Assembly: GCF_029953265.1 (NCBI RefSeq)
Contig: NZ_JASBAO010000001.1
Coordinates: 372,001 to 436,000, forward strand
Length of the DNA: 64,000 bases
DNA from: Commensalibacter oyaizuii
Lineage (GTDB): Bacteria > Pseudomonadota > Alphaproteobacteria > Acetobacterales > Acetobacteraceae
Direction of reading: 5' to 3'
The first letter of the stretch is position 1. Every line of letters begins with the position of its first letter. Position numbers and translations under genes: made by a program. Below the pieces are notes generated by a model. That model searched no databases, was not told the origin of the DNA, and saw only the letters and a program-made list of their open reading frames with translations. Below, piece after piece: positions 43,604 through 53,652 of this stretch.

Positions 43604-45286
43604 ATGTCTGTAACATCAATTGATTCAAGATTAATTGGAGTAGGAGCTTTACTAAAACAACAGCGTTTGGCGGTTCCTTCTTACCAAAGATCTTATAAAT
43701 GGGAGTTGCAGCAAGTTAAAGAGCTGTATCAAGACATAATTGATGCAAAAAATAAAAAAAGTGAGCAGTATTTTCTTGGAACGGTCGTTATAACAAAAAG
43801 CGAGCATGACAATATAAAAAATATAATTGATGGTCAGCAGCGAATTGTAACAGCCTCTATATTAATTTCAGCAATAAGAAATTATTTTGCAAAGAAAAAG
43901 GATACAGATAGTGTAGAAACCATTACGCGAGATTATATTTCAAGTAAAGATTTACGCACTAAAAATGAAATATCTCATGTTTTAATCCTTCCTGATGATC
44001 AAAAATTTTATACTGAGTATGTTATTAAAATTAAACATATTGGGCAAAAAGCTCCTAAAAATTTATCAGATACGCAAAAACGTCTCTTCCATGCGATTAA
44101 ACAAGCACAGGAAACTATAGCAAAAATAACAGATAAAGATTTAACAAAAACTCCAGATGATGATTTGTTTGATCTTATTGAGTTTATTGAAAAGAAAACA
44201 GTTCTGGTTTCCCTTGATGTAGGAGATGAGGCCAATGCATATGTAATATTTGAAGTGTTGAATGATAGAGGGCTTGATTTAACCGTAGCAGATTTATTGA
44301 AGAATTATGTGTTTGGTGCAGCAGGAAAAGAAAAATTATCTGAGTGTCAAGCACAATGGAATAAGATGAATACATTAATATCGAATTCTCATGGTGAGGG
44401 TGATGTTAAAAAATTTATCAGACATGATTGGATTTCACGTAATGGTCTTATTAGGGAAAGAGATTTATATGATGAAATTAAGCGGACAATTACAAATGAG
44501 ACATCTGTATCTAACTATATAACTAATTTATCGAATAATTCTGAAATATATGCTGCTTTTTTAAATTTAGATTCATCTTTATGGAAAGACTATAACGACA
44601 AAGTAAAGCAAGCACTATATTTGTTTAATATAGCTAAAATTACGCAAGTTAGGCCTTTGTTGATGTCTGTTTTTAATAATTTTAATAAAAAAGAAATTAA
44701 TAAAACTATTCCGATGCTTGCCTCATGGAGTGTTAGGTTTTTAATCTGTGGTGAAGGTGGTAGTGGAGAGCTTGAAAAAAATTATGCGCAAAAAGCAAAA
44801 GAAATTTCCAACAAAACTATAACTACAGCTCTAGAATTATTTGATTCTTTTAAGATTTTGCCAACTGATATAAGATTTGAAAATAGTTTTGCCACAGTGA
44901 ATGCCAAAGGTATATTAGCTCGATGGTGTTTATCAGAATTAGAAATAGAAAAAAATGGTAATCAGCAGAAAATTGCAAACCCTGACACAAACGAGGTCAA
45001 TCTTGAACATGTTTTTCCAGAGAAATCTGGTGATTCTTGGGAAAAAGCTTCTAAGGATATTTCAAAATATCTTCATAGATTGGGCAATTTGGCTTTATTG
45101 AAAGCGAAAGACAATTCACTAGTTGGCAATTGTTCATTTGCTGATAAAAAGAAAGTCTATTCAAAATCTGACTTCTTACTAACAAAAGAAATAGCAAGTT
45201 GTTCGTCTTGGGATGTTAATGAGATAAATAACAGACAAAAAGAGCTTGCAAAGCTTGCTGTAAGGAGATGGAAAAATAAGCCTTGA
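43604..45286 (+). CDS. GmrSD-like DUF262/DUF1524 protein, probable type IV restriction or defence
   Basis: The N-terminal DUF262 domain (about residues 8-240) carries Y-Q-R-S-Y-K-W at 27-33 and the nucleotide-binding D-G-Q-Q-R at 76-80. The C-terminal DUF1524 domain (about 430-560) has the HNH-like core N-L-E-H-V-F-P-E-K and L-H-R-L-G-N-L-A-L-L, followed by F-A-D-K-K-K-V-Y. This two-domain layout is that of single-chain GmrSD enzymes, which use NTP hydrolysis to cut DNA with modified (glucosylated hydroxymethyl) cytosine. Its 560 residues fit. It is a lone gene between housekeeping genes, and appears more AT-rich than the preceding oxidoreductase gene, which suggests acquisition. Target and activity are inferred. 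Confidence 0.85.
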   Translation: MSVTSIDSRLIGVGALLKQQRLAVPSYQRSYKWELQQVKELYQDIIDAKNKKSEQYFLGTVVITKSEHDNIKNIIDGQQRIVTASILISAIRNYFAKKKDTDSVETITRDYISSKDLRTKNEISHVLILPDDQKFYTEYVIKIKHIGQKAPKNLSDTQKRLFHAIKQAQETIAKITDKDLTKTPDDDLFDLIEFIEKKTVLVSLDVGDEANAYVIFEVLNDRGLDLTVADLLKNYVFGAAGKEKLSECQAQWNKMNTLISNSHGEGDVKKFIRHDWISRNGLIRERDLYDEIKRTITNETSVSNYITNLSNNSEIYAAFLNLDSSLWKDYNDKVKQALYLFNIAKITQVRPLLMSVFNNFNKKEINKTIPMLASWSVRFLICGEGGSGELEKNYAQKAKEISNKTITTALELFDSFKILPTDIRFENSFATVNAKGILARWCLSELEIEKNGNQQKIANPDTNEVNLEHVFPEKSGDSWEKASKDISKYLHRLGNLALLKAKDNSLVGNCSFADKKKVYSKSDFLLTKEIASCSSWDVNEINNRQKELAKLAVRRWKNKP

Positions 45287-47158: not shown

Positions 47159-48226
47159 TTATGAGGTTATTCGTTGAGAAAATCTAATACATGGTAATTC
47201 TATCACACGGTAAGAGATAATACTAATGAAAATGGTTGATACTATTTCAATTAAAGAGTGAAGTAGTCCTGATAATTGTTGATAAGAATGTAGTTTTAAA
47301 GCAATATAACCACTCATTCCCATTACTGGAAAATGCCATAAATATATGGAATATGATATATTTCCAAGTTTTATAAAAAACATGGGTACATAAATTTTTT
47401 TTCGATATTCTAAACCTATAAAACCATACAAAAGTAATGCTGCTCCAAAACCATTCAAATATAAAGATTGCCAGTAATCAAGATAAAAATGTTGAGCAAA
47501 GTTTTTATAGGATAACACGGAACCTATGGTAAATAGTGTAAGCCCTAATAATACACCTAAATACTTATCATAAATAGCAATTCTTTTTTTTGATAAAAAA
47601 AATAGCAATCCACCTAAAAAAAACTCTAATACTTTTGGATCTTTTAAAATAAAGTATTCTATCGTACGTATACCTATAAAATGAAGGTACAAAAAACAAA
47701 ATAAAAAAATGCCCCAACAAAGCAAAAAATATAGAAAATGCTTTTTATTAAAAACACAAAGAAATAAAAATACACCTAAATAAAAATATATCTCAAAGGC
47801 CAAGGTCCAAGCGACCTCTTGAAATGGAATATTCCTAGTTAATAATAGTATGACATTAATGTTTATTTTCTTTTGAAGTTTATCTGCTTGATAACCTATT
47901 ACTAAGGCAACACATATATTAATAGATAGCGTTATCCAAAAAAGAGGATATATTCTAAAGAAGCGTTTAATTAAGAAGAAGAAAGCGTTCTTAAATGAAC
48001 GTTCATTTGTTTTCAAAACCAATAAGGTTATAATATATCCACTGATTACAAAGAAAATATCGACTCCGCAACTGCCAATAGAGATAACGATACGTGATAA
48101 TTCTGTTGTGAATGAATGTAAATTTCCATCTGTTCGCATTTTTGTTGTAATACAATGTATCGAGCAAACAAATAAAGCAGCAATTCCACGCAAGGCTTGT
48201 ATAGTATTTAAGGTTTGTTTTTTCAC
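47159..48226 (-). CDS. Acyltransferase-3 family membrane protein
   Basis: This is an integral-membrane O-acyltransferase of the OafA/ExoZ type, 355 residues and about ten helices. The N-terminal Q-A-L-R-G-I-A-A-L-F-V and nearby histidine (S-I-H-C) are the family active-site region, and the next motif is F-F-V-I-S-G-Y-I. Such enzymes add acetyl or other acyl groups to sugars of lipopolysaccharide or exopolysaccharide. Its ATG overlaps the stop of the preceding polytopic gene (ATGA), so it is translated as the last member of the six-gene operon starting at 53652. The operon position supports an acceptor made by those genes. Confidence 0.92.
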   Translation of the reverse strand: MKKQTLNTIQALRGIAALFVCSIHCITTKMRTDGNLHSFTTELSRIVISIGSCGVDIFFVISGYIITLLVLKTNERSFKNAFFFLIKRFFRIYPLFWITLSINICVALVIGYQADKLQKKININVILLLTRNIPFQEVAWTLAFEIYFYLGVFLFLCVFNKKHFLYFLLCWGIFLFCFLYLHFIGIRTIEYFILKDPKVLEFFLGGLLFFLSKKRIAIYDKYLGVLLGLTLFTIGSVLSYKNFAQHFYLDYWQSLYLNGFGAALLLYGFIGLEYRKKIYVPMFFIKLGNISYSIYLWHFPVMGMSGYIALKLHSYQQLSGLLHSLIEIVSTIFISIISYRVIELPCIRFSQRITS

Positions 48227-49503
48227 TTTTTATCATCATGATGAGTAAGGGTCATATGAACCCAATCAGGCCACAATTGAAAATTATAGCTGGGATTTCT
48301 CTTCCACAGTTCGACCTGTTGCTGCCATGGTAAACAATTTGCTGGCGCTTTGATAATAAATGTTGGATGTGCAAAATAATGGATACCTCCAACTAATATT
48401 AACCAACAGATAACAGCCCGCCCAATTTTCTGACTTAAATGATGGAGTTGATTGGTAATATACACCAGTGTGATGCATAAAATAGACTGACTTATAAAAA
48501 GATACCGTTGGTTGGTAAATAGAGTTAGAAAGCCACTCCTATCTCCTATCGATCCAATAACTGAAATACAAAAAAGTGCGAGAGCAGAAGCAAATAAAAA
48601 TATTGCAGGACGTGTTTTTACATATGCGTGAAAAATCCATAAAACACCCGCTATAAATAAAATAGTTACCGTAAAGGGGATAATAACAGCCTTAATATTA
48701 TGCATATTATCATGAAGATAATCGATATAGGGTACAGTAAATCGATTAATACCACCAAATGGGATATATAATTCATGAGCAAAAAAAATGGTTGAAAAAT
48801 CGAACAAATTAAAAGAATGGAAACGAGATTCTATTTTTTCGTAGAAGAAAAAATATTGAACGCAACAGCTGATTGAAAGGGCAATAAATTCTTCAATTCG
48901 AAGTTTATCTTTATCCAGCCAGCAACGAACTGCGTAGATAGGAATGAGAGCAAAATTCATTAATCCAGAGAGGCCAGCAAACATTAAAACCAGTAATTTT
49001 AGCCATCTTTGGTAAGAATAATTAGGTTGCAAAACAAGAATAATTGCAGCAGCTAAGGTTAACTGAAATTGAATGTGTAAACTTTGTAGGGAAGTTTCCA
49101 AAGTTTCTGGAACAAATAATAACAATAAGGTCAAGAATAATCGTGTTTTAAATGAATTCAGCCATTCATCTTTGGCTGATAATAATAAAAATAAAGGAAG
49201 GAGTTGAAATAATAATCCTACAATTGTTGTAAAATATGGGGCATATTCCAAAGGAATCAACCATCTAGCAACTAGGGTTACAGCATTCGTTGGAAGGTTA
49301 AGATAACCTCCAAAAGAATGAAATAATGCTTGTAAAGGGGGCATTGTCCAAGCATTGTGGAAAAAAACATCTCCTTCTTCTGCCCAAAAGCGCCCGTAAA
49401 TAAAAACGTCTGGTGCGCGAAGGCACATCATAAGGGCAAAAATACTAATCAAAAACAACGTTTGGTAATGACGCTTCTTTAGTTTATTTAATAAAAAGGA
49501 CAT
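48223..49503 (-). CDS. Polytopic GT-C-like membrane protein, third tandem paralog
   Basis: The 426-residue protein has about ten hydrophobic segments. After the first helix (about 14-30) it carries Y-G-R-F-W-A-E-E-G-D-V-F-F near residue 36, an acidic pair in the first outer loop, as in GT-C glycosyltransferases that use lipid-linked sugars. Other shared segments are F-G-G-Y-L-N-L, P-L-E-Y-A-P-Y and F-V-P-E-T-L-E-T-S-L-Q-S-L-H-I-Q-F. The soluble end has L-P-W-Q-Q-Q-V-E-L-W-K-R-N-P. The two upstream neighbours share all of these. GT-C membership is inferred from topology and motif position; I do not recognise a named family. Confidence 0.82.
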   Translation of the reverse strand: MSFLLNKLKKRHYQTLFLISIFALMMCLRAPDVFIYGRFWAEEGDVFFHNAWTMPPLQALFHSFGGYLNLPTNAVTLVARWLIPLEYAPYFTTIVGLLFQLLPLFLLLSAKDEWLNSFKTRLFLTLLLLFVPETLETSLQSLHIQFQLTLAAAIILVLQPNYSYQRWLKLLVLMFAGLSGLMNFALIPIYAVRCWLDKDKLRIEEFIALSISCCVQYFFFYEKIESRFHSFNLFDFSTIFFAHELYIPFGGINRFTVPYIDYLHDNMHNIKAVIIPFTVTILFIAGVLWIFHAYVKTRPAIFLFASALALFCISVIGSIGDRSGFLTLFTNQRYLFISQSILCITLVYITNQLHHLSQKIGRAVICWLILVGGIHYFAHPTFIIKAPANCLPWQQQVELWKRNPSYNFQLWPDWVHMTLTHHDDKK

Positions 49504-49539
49504 AGTGAAAGTTCGATTAATTCTTGAAATAGATAGGGT

Positions 49540-50793
49540 TTAATCATCTGTTTTAGGCAGCTTCATTGTCCACCCTTTAGGCCAAATTTGGAAAGTATAA
49601 TTTGGATTTTTTTTCCACAATTCAACTTGTTCTTGCCAAGGGGGGACACCGTAAGAATAAGAAATATAGTGATAGTAGTTATTTACACTGGCAATAATCA
49701 GCCATACCATTAATAAATTACATAATATTTGTCCAGGTTTTGGTAAACTAGATGAGAAATAAAGTAGAGTTATAGATAATAGCGATTGACTAATAAAGGC
49801 ATATCTTTGATTAAAATAGGGTTCAAAGAACCAGTATTTGGGACCAATTGATCCGATAATAGATAATCCTAGATTTAACAAAGCGTAAGCAATTAAAAAG
49901 CCAGATGGTCTGGTCTTAGGATATCTATACACGCATCCTAATAAAATAGTGATAACTAAGAACCCTAAAACAGAGGATAAAATCGGTACTTGATGGTTTT
50001 TGAATAATTGTTCGATATATAAACTGTAACCGTTTGAAAAACTGTTATTTCCTAAAAAAGGAATATAAATATCTTTAATAAAGAAAATACTTAAAAACTC
50101 AGAAAGGGACGCATGATATTCCCGTTCATGAAAAGGAGTATAGAAAAATACAAATTGTATAATATTGCCAATACATAATACGATGAATTGTTCAATTCTA
50201 AGCCAATTTCTTTGAAAAATTGATTGTAACAAAAACAAAGGTAATAGCAGTAGCGTCATCACACCAGAAAGTGCAGATAATAATAAAATGCTTAATTTAA
50301 ACCACCGTTGACGTGATTTTGAAATATCAAGCATGACAATTATTGCACATGCCAAGGTTAATGAAAATTGAATATGCAGGCTTTGTAGTGAAATTTCTAA
50401 TGTCTCTGGAACGAATAATAAAAGCAAAGTAGCGAATAGACGATTTTTAAATGAAATAAGCCATTGATCTGTTGCAGTTAAAAGGAGGAAAAGAGGCAAA
50501 AGTTGAAATAATAACCCTATCCCCATAGTTACATAGGGTGCATATGCAAGGGGTACAGACCATTTAGCAATCAAGGGAACCGCATTAGCTGTAAGGTTCA
50601 AATATCCCCCATAGGACACAAATAACGCCTTTAATGGTGGCATGATCCAAGCATTATGAAAGAATGTTTCGCCTTCTTCTGCCCAAAACCGTCCATGCAT
50701 AATGATTTCAGGGGATCTTGTACAATGAATAGTAATGGTTAATAAGAGTAACCCTATTGTTTGATAAGTTTTATTGATACAAAGTTTATTCAT
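49540..50793 (-). CDS. Polytopic GT-C-like membrane protein, second tandem paralog
   Basis: The 417-residue protein has the same plan as its neighbours: a first helix, then H-G-R-F-W-A-E-E-G-E-T-F-F-H-N-A-W, then Y-G-G-Y-L-N-L, P-L-A-Y-A-P-Y and F-V-P-E-T-L-E-I-S-L-Q-S-L-H-I-Q-F, and a C-terminal W-Q-E-Q-V-E-L-W-K-K-N-P-N-Y. The central helices are more divergent than the motifs, as expected if the motifs are functional. It starts 13 bases after the first paralog ends and ends 36 bases before the third begins. The activity is inferred to be glycosyl transfer at the outer face; not proven. Confidence 0.82.
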   Translation of the reverse strand: MNKLCINKTYQTIGLLLLTITIHCTRSPEIIMHGRFWAEEGETFFHNAWIMPPLKALFVSYGGYLNLTANAVPLIAKWSVPLAYAPYVTMGIGLLFQLLPLFLLLTATDQWLISFKNRLFATLLLLFVPETLEISLQSLHIQFSLTLACAIIVMLDISKSRQRWFKLSILLLSALSGVMTLLLLPLFLLQSIFQRNWLRIEQFIVLCIGNIIQFVFFYTPFHEREYHASLSEFLSIFFIKDIYIPFLGNNSFSNGYSLYIEQLFKNHQVPILSSVLGFLVITILLGCVYRYPKTRPSGFLIAYALLNLGLSIIGSIGPKYWFFEPYFNQRYAFISQSLLSITLLYFSSSLPKPGQILCNLLMVWLIIASVNNYYHYISYSYGVPPWQEQVELWKKNPNYTFQIWPKGWTMKLPKTDD

Positions 50794-50806
50794 TGATTAC
50801 AAATCA

Positions 50807-52126
50807 TCAAGGATTATCGATTTTAGCATCTTGAAGTTGCTTGGGAATAATAATATACCAACCGCTGCACCAAATTTTAGGATGATAGTTTGGATCTTTT
50901 CTCCATTTTTGTAATTCATTTTGCCATATATGTCCTGCACCATCTTTTGCTTCGGGAAAAGTTTGAAAAAAATTGTAGCTTCCAATAATCAACAGCCACA
51001 GTATGATGATATTTACAAATATTTTTCCCCAATATGGCAGGGTCACAGAGAAATAAAGAATTAAAATGCTTAATAAAGCTTGGCTGATAAAAGTATAACG
51101 TTCGGAAAAATAAGGATTGATAAGTTGCACAGTCCCGCCAATAGCCCCATAAATCGCAACACAGGAAAATAAAATAATACTGATTAATAATGGGATTGCG
51201 GGTCTTGTTTTAGGGTATCTTATAAAGATACTGATAAAAATACCAAAGGTGACAAAGGTCGCAACGCAGGCTTGTAGTGATCTTTTATGATCTTGTACTA
51301 AAATGAATATACGTCCCATCATATCCAAAGCAAATTGGTGACGATGACCTAAAAATGGAAATATGAGATCACGAATATAGAAAACATTGCAAAAATCATA
51401 AAAAGATATGTGACTATTACGCGTAATGGATACATTATTTAAATCGATATTATATCGTATATTAAATAAAAAGAACGCCATTTGAATTGAACCACCGATG
51501 ATGATAGCAATCGTTTGTTCCAAGCGTAAACGATCTTTTTCAACCAAATATTTTCCAACAAAAATTGGGATAAGAACAATCGGCAACAATCCACATAAAG
51601 GTGCCCAAAATAATAGAAAAAGTTTTAAATATCGTTGGTGTTTTTTATGGGTATTCAGAAAAACAATTATTGTACACGCTAGGGCCAGATGAAATTGAAT
51701 ATGCAAGCTTTGCAAAGAAATTTCGGAAGATTCTGGAATAAATAAAAGTAATAAAGTAGCCAATATCCTCGTATGAAAGGGTTGCAGCCATTCATCAGAT
51801 GCCGTTAATAAAAGATAAATAGGGGTTAGTTGAAACAAAAAACCAATAAAAGTTGTTACATAAGGTGCATATTCCAAGGGAATATACATATAACGTGTAA
51901 TTAGTGTGGCCCCACTGGCCCCTAAATTAATATATCCACCATAGACAACAAATAAAGCATGTAAAGGACTCATATTCCATGCATTTGCATAAAATATATT
52001 TCCTTCTTCGGCCCAAAAACGTCCTTGTATTAGAATATCAGGGGCTCTTAAATATAAAAAGATTGCATAAAAGCCCAACAAAAAAAATGTTTGATAAGGG
52101 TGTTTTTTTATGAAGCTATGAAACAA
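50807..52126 (-). CDS. Polytopic GT-C-like membrane protein, first tandem paralog
   Basis: The 439-residue protein is the most divergent of the three, but retains Q-G-R-F-W-A-E-E-G-N-I-F-Y, Y-G-G-Y-I-N-L, P-L-E-Y-A-P-Y, S-S-E-I-S-L-Q-S-L-H-I-Q-F and the C-terminal W-R-K-D-P-N-Y-H-P-K-I-W. About ten to eleven helices are expected. It lies 59 bases after the TVP38-like gene and 13 bases before the next paralog. Three similar copies in tandem point to duplication with specialisation, perhaps each for a different sugar or position. Confidence 0.82.
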   Translation of the reverse strand: MFHSFIKKHPYQTFFLLGFYAIFLYLRAPDILIQGRFWAEEGNIFYANAWNMSPLHALFVVYGGYINLGASGATLITRYMYIPLEYAPYVTTFIGFLFQLTPIYLLLTASDEWLQPFHTRILATLLLLFIPESSEISLQSLHIQFHLALACTIIVFLNTHKKHQRYLKLFLLFWAPLCGLLPIVLIPIFVGKYLVEKDRLRLEQTIAIIIGGSIQMAFFLFNIRYNIDLNNVSITRNSHISFYDFCNVFYIRDLIFPFLGHRHQFALDMMGRIFILVQDHKRSLQACVATFVTFGIFISIFIRYPKTRPAIPLLISIILFSCVAIYGAIGGTVQLINPYFSERYTFISQALLSILILYFSVTLPYWGKIFVNIIILWLLIIGSYNFFQTFPEAKDGAGHIWQNELQKWRKDPNYHPKIWCSGWYIIIPKQLQDAKIDNP

Positions 52127-52185: not shown

Positions 52186-52905
52186 TTATGATGTTTGCTT
52201 AGGGATTTTTAGGATCTTATTCAATAATTTGCTTAGATGCCAGACCAATATTCCAGTACCAATAAATGCAACAATAAACAATAAATGCTGAATAAAATGA
52301 ATATGTTGATTTTGTATATTATTTGCCTCCGTATTGGCGATATGTCCCATAAGCACATATCCAAAAAGTGCTGGCAGCGAGGCCAGCGTACCAATCAGGT
52401 AAGAGCGAAACGAAATTGATGTCAAACCAAGGGCATAGCTGGTAACTGCAAAAGGCATGATAGGGGAAATACGTAACAAACAAACTAATTTCCAGCCATC
52501 TATGTGCAATAAATGATCCAATTTTTGCATTCTTGAAGAGCGCCGCAAAAATTTTTCAATAAGAGGCCGAAAAATGGATCGACTTAATAAAAAAGAAATA
52601 ATGGCTCCAATCAAAGTCGCTGAGGCAGATAATAAAAAGCCTTTCCATATTCCATAAAGCAAACCAGAACCAAAAGCAGCCGTAGAAGCTGGTAAAATGC
52701 CACACAGTGAAATTATAATTTGGATAATTTCAGAAAAAAACAATCCCTGCCACGAAGAAGTATGACTGGTATTTTGATACGCTTGTAAATATTGTATAAA
52801 AGTTTGCGCATAAGGGCCAATAAAAAATATGCACCCTATGACAAGAGTGACAGCAAAGAAAAGTAAGATCAACCAAAAAGCTGTTTTTGAAAAATACGCT
52901 GCCAT
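52186..52905 (-). CDS. TVP38/TMEM64 (DedA-superfamily) membrane protein
   Basis: The 239-residue polytopic protein has the VTT-domain features: G-I-L-P-A-S-T-A-A-F-G-S-G-L-L-Y-G near residue 73, a charged E-K-F-L-R-R loop, then L-L-R-I-S-P-I-M-P-F and Y-A-L-G-L-T-S-I-S-F-R-S-Y near 150. DedA-superfamily members include flippases or scramblases for undecaprenyl phosphate and other lipids. It starts six bases after the GT2 gene and precedes three GT-C-like genes, so a lipid-carrier flipping role is a reasonable inference. It could instead be a general membrane-homeostasis protein. Confidence 0.9.
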   Translation of the reverse strand: MAAYFSKTAFWLILLFFAVTLVIGCIFFIGPYAQTFIQYLQAYQNTSHTSSWQGLFFSEIIQIIISLCGILPASTAAFGSGLLYGIWKGFLLSASATLIGAIISFLLSRSIFRPLIEKFLRRSSRMQKLDHLLHIDGWKLVCLLRISPIMPFAVTSYALGLTSISFRSYLIGTLASLPALFGYVLMGHIANTEANNIQNQHIHFIQHLLFIVAFIGTGILVWHLSKLLNKILKIPKQTS

Positions 52906-52911
52906 ATAAGG

Positions 52912-53652
52912 TTATTTTTCAAATAACTTATTTGAAATAATACCACATTTATGCAAACGATACTCTATTGAAGTTTTTAAAACCCCTAAACCGTAAATAA
53001 TGCTACGTTTTAAATTTATAGATGAGGCTTCTTTAAAATATTTCGTTGGACATGAAATCTCACCAACACGATAGTTCTTAAAAATTGCTTGTGCTAGCAT
53101 TTGATTATCAAAAATAAAATCATCAGAACATTTATCTAGGGACAAATCCTCTAAAACTTCTTTTGTCCATCCTCTATAACCCGTGTGGTATTCAGACAAT
53201 TTAGCATTTAATAAAATATTTTGTATAAAGGTTAAAATACGATTGGCAACATATTTATATAAAGGCATACCCCCCCGTAACGCACCTTTTCCCAAGATAC
53301 GGGACGCTATAACCACATCATAATGACCAGAGGTTAGCATACTAATCATAGATTGCAGCAATTTTGGACTATATTGATAATCGGGGTGTAACATAATAAC
53401 GATATCAGCCCCTCTTTTCAAAGCAGCATCGTAACAGGTTTTTTGGTTAGCACCATACCCTTTGTTTTTCTGATGAATAATTGTATGAATATTTAATTGT
53501 CTTGCAACTTCAACAGTATTATCTTTACTTGCATCGTCAGTTAAAATGATGTCATCAATAATTTCATGAGGAATTTCTTCAAATGTTTGTCTTAATGTTT
53601 TTGCAGCATTATAAGCAGGCAAAATAATAGCAATATGTTTGTTATTCATCAT
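52912..53652 (-). CDS. Glycosyltransferase family 2, polyprenyl-phosphate sugar synthase-like
   Basis: The 246-residue GT-A enzyme has A-I-I-L-P-A-Y-N-A-A near the start, the nucleotide-sugar D-D-A-S-K-D-N-T at about 39, and the M-L-H-P-D-Y-Q-Y-S-P motif at about 92, where dolichol-phosphate mannosyltransferases have D-A-D-x-Q. Y-H-T-G-Y-R-G-W follows near 155. There is no C-terminal membrane domain, so it acts at the inner face of the membrane. It begins the six-gene minus-strand operon. Likely role: load a sugar on a lipid carrier for the genes downstream. Two adjacent start codons (53652, 53649) are possible. Confidence 0.88.
   Translation of the reverse strand: MMNNKHIAIILPAYNAAKTLRQTFEEIPHEIIDDIILTDDASKDNTVEVARQLNIHTIIHQKNKGYGANQKTCYDAALKRGADIVIMLHPDYQYSPKLLQSMISMLTSGHYDVVIASRILGKGALRGGMPLYKYVANRILTFIQNILLNAKLSEYHTGYRGWTKEVLEDLSLDKCSDDFIFDNQMLAQAIFKNYRVGEISCPTKYFKEASSINLKRSIIYGLGVLKTSIEYRLHKCGIISNKLFEK

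What the first reader, a model, noticed from the sequence alone, without database searches (positions are those of the whole stretch)
48223..52126. Tandem triplication of an unnamed membrane family with a GRFWAEEG motif
Three consecutive genes of 417-439 residues share an acidic motif in the first outer loop (G-R-F-W-A-E-E-G), a Y/F-G-G-Y-x-N-L segment, P-L-x-Y-A-P-Y, S-L-Q-S-L-H-I-Q-F, and a C-terminal soluble W-x-x-x-P-x-Y-x-x-x-I/L-W motif. The remaining helices are much more divergent. Retention of the motifs with divergence between them suggests three active but specialised enzymes. The acidic first loop is where GT-C enzymes place their catalytic base.
Basis: partly seen in the sequence, partly recalled or inferred. 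Interest (0 to 1): 0.55.

Follow-up and report, generated by a model that had tools for sequence, protein, structure and literature searches.

The report
Three tandem GtrV-like surface-sugar transferases
Three neighbouring genes of a gut-commensal acetic-acid bacterium encode distant cousins of the phage enzymes that change Shigella serotypes, next to the genes expected to make and move their lipid-linked sugar, so this looks like a small kit for decorating the cell surface in several different ways.

Summary
In detail: three minus-strand genes (426, 417, 439 aa; 39-50% identical) share every motif listed. They have no Pfam or NCBIfam model, but the family is not without known relatives. A profile of only these three finds the serotype-converting glucosyltransferase GtrV of Shigella phage SfV (E 2.5e-18); profile comparison aligns them end to end with GtrV/GtrX-type proteins. 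Of 25 distinct viral contigs carrying relatives, 19 have gtrA and gtrB directly upstream. A predicted structure (pLDDT 90, pTM 0.91) is a GT-C glycosyltransferase: all 48 best VIA-align rows (Z 15.2-7.7) have that fold; the next row is Z 4.5. The two first-loop acids are acidic in 74 of 74 relatives, E136 and Q216 invariant in 75 of 75. Upstream lie a GT2 gene and a VTT/DedA gene, downstream an acyltransferase. The copies fall into three old orthologous clades. Best reading: a Gtr-type three-component glycosylation cassette in which a TVP38-like VTT protein stands where phages have GtrA, feeding three acceptor-specific transferases. GT-C membership is well supported; sugar, acceptor, activity and VTT role are inferred.

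The parts
52912..53652 (-). GT2 glycosyltransferase, expected polyprenyl-phosphate-sugar synthase (GtrB role), first gene of the cassette
   Evidence: Pfam PF00535 E 6.8e-23; best NCBIfam resemblance AglJ and PpgS, both under their cut-offs; 246 aa against 307 aa of phage GtrB
52186..52905 (-). VTT/DedA membrane protein, TVP38-like; proposed lipid-carrier flippase of the cassette
   Evidence: Pfam PF09335 E 2.9e-23; next to the GT2 gene in 22 of 29 ortholog loci examined
50807..52126 (-). GtrV-like GT-C transferase, clade C (439 aa)
49540..50793 (-). GtrV-like GT-C transferase, clade B (417 aa)
48223..49503 (-). GtrV-like GT-C transferase, clade A (426 aa); the protein modelled
47159..48226 (-). 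Membrane acyltransferase (Acyl_transf_3), overlaps the preceding gene by 4 bases; possible O-acylation of the same glycan
   Evidence: PF01757 E 4.9e-31; ortholog in G246 at 58.6%, no hit in the C. intestini, C. communis or G214 loci, fragments in G040

Best explanation
The three genes encode GT-C-fold, polyprenyl-phosphate-sugar-dependent glycosyltransferases that are remote homologs of the serotype-converting glucosyltransferases GtrV and GtrX. They belong to a cassette that starts with a GT2 enzyme expected to load a hexose on undecaprenyl phosphate in the cytoplasm (inferred) and a VTT/DedA membrane protein expected to move the lipid-linked sugar out, or the spent carrier back in (inferred). 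The transferase then passes the sugar, on the periplasmic side, to a surface glycan, most likely lipopolysaccharide O-antigen or core (inferred), with an acid of the first-loop pair E42/E43 as base and E136 as a second acidic residue (inferred from conservation). The donor part is shared; each transferase would set a different acceptor position or linkage, as gtr(type) genes do in phages. Shown: homology, fold, conserved acids, gene order, co-occurrence and three old clades. Not shown: activity, sugar, acceptor.
For: Profile of the three window proteins alone finds GtrV at E 2.5e-18 in 3,309 sequences; reversed GtrV and GtrX give no hit; GtrX is found by the 10-sequence profile (E 5.4e-12). 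hhalign: A3 against five GtrV/X-type proteins 99.6%, E 1.7e-23, 380 columns; A1 against GtrV alone 98.6%. Named identity of the relative: L109 is 100% SfV GtrV, and 35% to the SfX glucosyl transferase. 19 of 25 distinct viral contigs have gtrA and gtrB directly upstream. Structure pLDDT 90.3, pTM 0.91; the 48 best VIA rows are GT-C folds, Z 15.2-7.7, then 4.5. Acids at 42 and 43 in 74 of 74, E136 and Q216 in 75 of 75. In the genus the GT2 ortholog is in exactly the 6 of 9 genomes that have intact copies; in the family 29 genomes have a homolog, 35 the GT2, 14 both, of 249, Fisher p 1.7e-6. Three paralog clades across species.
Against: Foldseek E-values are weak (best 1.0e-3); the GT-C call rests on the VIA Z gap and on homology. 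No gtrA gene in the cassette; the two GtrA genes of this genome lie elsewhere. The GT2 is 246 aa, shorter than GtrB (307 aa), and its sugar is unknown. GtrX is not found by the three-row profile, only by the 10-row one. 15 of 29 family genomes with a homolog lack a GT2 ortholog, and the fourth copy in this genome stands apart from any such cassette, so the partnership is not obligatory. In GtrIV, another Gtr type, the conserved acids were reported non-critical (passages of PMC3259042). Fisher p ignores shared ancestry of the genomes.
Confidence: 0.83

Rival explanations
1. The cassette modifies a secreted polysaccharide or a protein (O- or N-glycosylation) rather than lipopolysaccharide; same GT-C chemistry, different acceptor.
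For: The best VIA rows include protein glycosyltransferases (STT3, PglB, Pmt, DPY19) as well as glycolipid enzymes. No O-antigen gene cluster was recognised beside the cassette, though only some window genes were scanned.
Against: Closest sequence relatives with a name are O-antigen glucosyltransferases GtrV and GtrX; the genome has an O-antigen ligase/polymerase-type protein, PF04932 E 6.0e-17; an acyltransferase sits in the same run of genes, as O-acetylation accompanies glucosylation in Shigella.
Confidence: 0.25
2. GT-C enzymes, but not fed by the neighbouring GT2 and VTT genes; the neighbourhood is incidental and the donor comes from another gtrB-like gene.
For: 15 of 29 family genomes with a homolog have no ortholog of this GT2; the genome has 20 GT2-domain matches and two GtrA genes, these elsewhere.
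Against: Same gene order in all six genus genomes with intact copies and adjacency in G181, G080 and G001; perfect presence/absence agreement in the genus.
Confidence: 0.15
3. Copies are redundant or decaying duplicates rather than specialised enzymes.
For: C. intestini has a broken copy (two ORFs, L038 9270-10572), G214 and G251 hold remnants with stops; two of nine genus genomes have none.
Against: The window's three copies are intact and each groups with its orthologs in other species (clade B 100/100, clade C 100/100, A with a G246 copy and the broken C. intestini copy 100/99), so they were kept separately for a long time.
Confidence: 0.15
4. The proteins are transporters or polymerases (Wzy/WaaL-like), not GT-C transferases.
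For: Polytopic, hydrophobic, no catalytic model hit.
Against: Transporters and WaaL score far below GT-C in the fold comparison; homology to glucosyltransferases.
Confidence: 0.03

Closest known systems
GtrV (Shigella phage SfV) and GtrX (phage SfX), serotype-specific O-antigen glucosyltransferases
   Same: Full-length homology, acidic first outer loop W-A-E-[ED]-[GA], G-Y, E136, Q216, R-Y, C-terminal soluble segment ending in a G-W motif; third component behind a GT2 gene
   Different: About 19-20% identity to the first window protein; chromosomal, in tandem triplicate, no gtrA beside them, shorter GT2
phrog_19534 'glucosyltransferase' (PHROGs)
   Same: All three window proteins are clear members by score
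   Different: A label without tested function; no phage record and no IMG/VR contig was confirmed with the window queries, so its members are probably predicted prophage proteins (inference)
ArnT (aminoarabinose transferase to lipid A)
   Same: GT-C fold (5f15, VIA Z 13.9, 345 residues, rmsd 5.5); undecaprenyl-phosphate sugar donor; lipopolysaccharide acceptor (recalled)
   Different: No sequence-level match; larger C-terminal part
Three-component (GtrA/GtrB/Gtr-type, GtcA-type) glycosylation systems
   Same: Donor synthase, membrane carrier protein and GT-C transferase
   Different: VTT/DedA protein in the place of GtrA; three transferases for one donor part

Membership tests
GT-C fold glycosyltransferase superfamily | GT-C fold | tested here: met
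   Model pLDDT 90.3/pTM 0.91; VIA Z 15.2-7.7 for 48 rows, all GT-C-fold chains by title or recalled knowledge (PIG-U subunits), next 4.5; Foldseek best E only 1.0e-3
GT-C fold glycosyltransferase superfamily | Conserved acid(s) in the first outer loop | tested here: met
   Positions 42 and 43 are acidic in 74 of 74 sequences with a residue (one row is a gap), 75 examined
GT-C fold glycosyltransferase superfamily | Transfer from a polyprenyl-phosphate(-linked) sugar | not testable with these tools
   Needs biochemistry
GtrV/GtrX serotype-specific transferases | Sequence homology over the whole length | tested here: met
   hmmsearch E 2.5e-18 to GtrV; hhalign 98.6-99.6% over about 380 columns
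GtrV/GtrX serotype-specific transferases | gtrA and gtrB directly upstream | tested here: not met
   A GT2 gene and a VTT gene are upstream; GtrA (PF04138) is found twice in the genome but not here
GtrV/GtrX serotype-specific transferases | Changes O-antigen serotype | not testable with these tools
   Needs a mutant and lipopolysaccharide analysis
UndP flippase DedA subfamily (COG0586), for the VTT gene | Acids at the first re-entrant helix and two arginines at the second, as described in PMC10127716 | tested here: inconclusive
   Alignment shows LPAS in the first and LLRxSPxMPF..TSYALG in the second stretch, one arginine, which looks like the COG0398/TVP38 type by recall; no COG model was run. 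NCBIfam UptA gives 18 bits against a cut-off of 250

The most novel reading that the evidence does not exclude
A TVP38-type VTT protein, of a DedA branch that PMC10127716 calls unlikely to be an undecaprenyl-phosphate flippase, is the dedicated flippase for a polyprenyl-phosphate sugar in Acetobacteraceae, replacing GtrA; with its GT2 partner it forms a portable donor module onto which different GT-C acceptor enzymes (this family in tandem, or other GT-C-like proteins, once apparently fused to the VTT domain) are plugged.
Probability: 0.35. Interest if true: 0.62.

Novelty: new variant of a known kind. Interest (0 to 1): 0.42.

Why it matters
It ties an unmodelled membrane family of acetic-acid bacteria to the phage serotype-conversion enzymes, supplies a confident GT-C model and a short list of residues to test for a family that Pfam does not cover, and shows a gene arrangement (GT2 + VTT + several transferases) that makes the open question of what TVP38-type VTT proteins carry directly testable. 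For insect-gut commensals it points to a locus likely to vary surface sugars, relevant to phage and host recognition.

Tried and rejected
Pfam and NCBIfam scans of the three and of 49 relatives gave only sub-cut-off noise. Sequence search of solved structures gave no real match. The first structure job, with only three sequences, failed (pLDDT 40.6) and was discarded. The BFVD fold search gave no match at E 0.001 or better. tblastn of the second window protein in phage records: none; in plasmids two weak relatives, Novosphingobium and Azospirillum. The IMG/VR scans with A1 and A5 confirmed no relative; A4 and A7 did. I considered that the fourth copy sits in a prophage because of the PHROG label; its neighbours are housekeeping-like genes by reading, not by a family scan. 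I looked for sigma-70 promoters: hits were no more than in shuffles (33 against 38.6). The literature search for Commensalibacter with O-antigen or glycosyltransferase listed nothing on this locus among the 15 titles shown; searches for TVP38/DedA with glycosyltransferase or GtrA listed no paper whose title or abstract start describes a VTT protein as a polyprenyl-phosphate-sugar flippase (one listed each of 32 and 86). Only passages of PMC3259042, PMC10127716 and PMC12826051 were read; other papers were seen as search listings only.

Rows dropped before counts: of 67 profile hits, sequences under 300 aa, identical copies and E above 1e-5 were left out (52 kept); L082:8157-10055, L062 and the broken L038:9270-10271 were left out of A2 (49 rows); viral fragments under 300 aa and duplicates were left out (22 kept). 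L127 and L128 look like the same gene neighbourhood, so the 25 contigs are not all independent. For GT2-VTT adjacency I examined 30 of 39 GT2 hits and left out the weak G104 hit; 9 were not fetched.
Full report
What is there. The window is G000:C1:372001-436000 of a 2.41 Mb genome. A fourth copy lies at C1:1669978-1671219.

Neighbourhood. Reading on the minus strand the order is GT2 (52912-53652, PF00535), VTT/DedA (52186-52905, PF09335), transferases C, B, A, acyltransferase (47159-48226, PF01757). Gaps are short and the last gene overlaps by 4 bases. Outside lie an ABC-type ATPase on one side and a divergent pair of ABC exporter genes on the other, named by reading and recall; orthologs of these flanks are found in the five other genus loci compared. 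Against G246, GT2 is 82% and the three transferases 62-67% identical, VTT 66%, acyltransferase 59%, flanking proteins 70-87%.

What the family is. No Pfam or NCBIfam model fits the three or any of 49 relatives; PHROGs calls them 'glucosyltransferase'. Homologs were found in 29 of 249 family genomes and 7 of 385 class genomes. A profile of distant relatives (A4) reached six prophage contigs; one relative, L109, is identical to GtrV of Shigella phage SfV, annotated as serotype-specific glucosyltransferase, and 35% identical to the SfX enzyme. The link does not depend on the stepping stones: the three window proteins alone find GtrV at E 2.5e-18, and reversed controls are silent; hhalign gives 98.6% for A1 against GtrV and 99.6% for A3 against five GtrV/X-type proteins over about 380 columns. 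GtrV and GtrX have no Pfam hit themselves. A second viral scan brought the total to 25 distinct contigs; in 19 gtrA and gtrB lie directly upstream, in one gtrB only, in one gtrA only, in one gtrB on the other strand, in two neither, and one match is at a contig end.

Fold. With 31 sequences the model of the 426-aa protein reached pLDDT 90.3 and pTM 0.91. Foldseek ranks ArnT bound to undecaprenyl phosphate and PglB first, at weak E-values near 1e-3. VIA-align on Foldseek's candidates gives 48 rows from Z 15.2 (ALG12) to 7.7 (ALG6), including STT3, AglB, PglB, Pmt, ArnT, AftA, AftB, AftD, Emb, DPY19, ALG9, ALG3 and PimE; the first row of another kind is TRPC6 at 4.5. Such a gap is what a shared fold gives.

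Conserved residues. In an alignment of 75 relatives (52 from bacterial genomes, 22 viral, GtrX) positions 42 and 43 are acidic in all 74 that have a residue; G66 and Y67 are present in 74 of 75 (the remaining row is a gap), E136 and Q216 in 75 of 75, R333 and Y334 in 74 of 75. In the model the acids stand at the start of a helix just after the first transmembrane helix. That this is the base, and E136 a second acidic residue as in other GT-C enzymes, is inference; the paper on GtrIV reports that its conserved acids were not critical (passages of PMC3259042), though GtrIV was not tested here for membership in this family.

Three old paralogs. The tree of 27 proteins puts C with one copy from each of four other genomes (100/100), B likewise (100/100), and A with one G246 copy and the broken C. 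intestini copy (100/99). C. communis and G040 lack an A copy in this locus; C. intestini carries four tandem copies of which one is split into two ORFs; G251 has only remnants with stops; G122 and G173 have none. So copies were kept apart but can be lost.

Donor module. In the genus the GT2 ortholog is in 6 of 9 genomes, exactly those with intact copies. In 249 family genomes 14 have both, 15 only the transferase, 21 only the GT2 (odds ratio 8.8, p 1.7e-6, relatedness ignored). Of 29 GT2-ortholog loci examined, 22 have the VTT gene adjacent; the seven without are L036, L202, L206, L208, L210, L213 and L216. In L210 a DUF2142 membrane protein follows the GT2 directly, and in L217 the VTT domain is continued by a second long hydrophobic part. 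GtrA is absent from the cassette, with two genes elsewhere.

Mechanism proposed. GT2 loads a sugar on undecaprenyl phosphate; the lipid-linked sugar crosses the membrane, perhaps by the VTT protein; each transferase hands the sugar to its own position on a surface glycan; the acyltransferase may add an acyl group to the same glycan. This follows the published scheme for gtrA, gtrB and gtr(type) (PMC3259042 passages). The VTT protein may instead return undecaprenyl phosphate to the inner face, the role reported for other DedA proteins (PMC12826051 and PMC10127716 passages). Its sequence resembles by recall the COG0398 branch, which PMC10127716 considers unlikely to flip undecaprenyl phosphate; this makes the gene pair interesting but does not prove a new activity.

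Verdict. The finding is real and the GT-C idea is right. It is a divergent, triplicated chromosomal branch of the GtrV/GtrX kind with an altered donor module: a new variant of a known kind.

Noticed in passing
L163 4654-6650 (G000:C1, about 149.6-151.7 kb): A GtrA gene next to a 484-aa membrane protein without Pfam hit: probably a second, separate Gtr-type unit of this genome.
   Followed up: partly
L217 6560-8665: A 701-aa ORF with a VTT domain continued by about 500 mostly hydrophobic residues without Pfam hit, directly after the GT2 ortholog: possible natural VTT and GT-C-like fusion.
   Followed up: partly
L037 6421-7986 (also L087 9767-11332): The clade C copy is 521 aa with an insert of roughly 90-100 residues that looks like an internal repeat of transmembrane segments.
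   Followed up: no
L038 9270-10572: In C. intestini the third copy is split into two ORFs of 333 and 89 aa, an apparent broken gene.
   Followed up: no
L130 3929-5790: A viral contig with gtrA, gtrB and then two family ORFs in a row (173 and 436 aa), a partial parallel to the tandem arrangement.
   Followed up: no
window 43604-45286: A GmrSD-type restriction endonuclease gene (PF03235, PF07510) close to the cassette.
   Followed up: no
L085 8976-11305 and L093 8460-9782: The dispersed fourth copy of this genome stands near a short GT2 gene of another type (305 aa) and groups in the tree with a dispersed C. intestini copy in a partly similar setting.
   Followed up: partly
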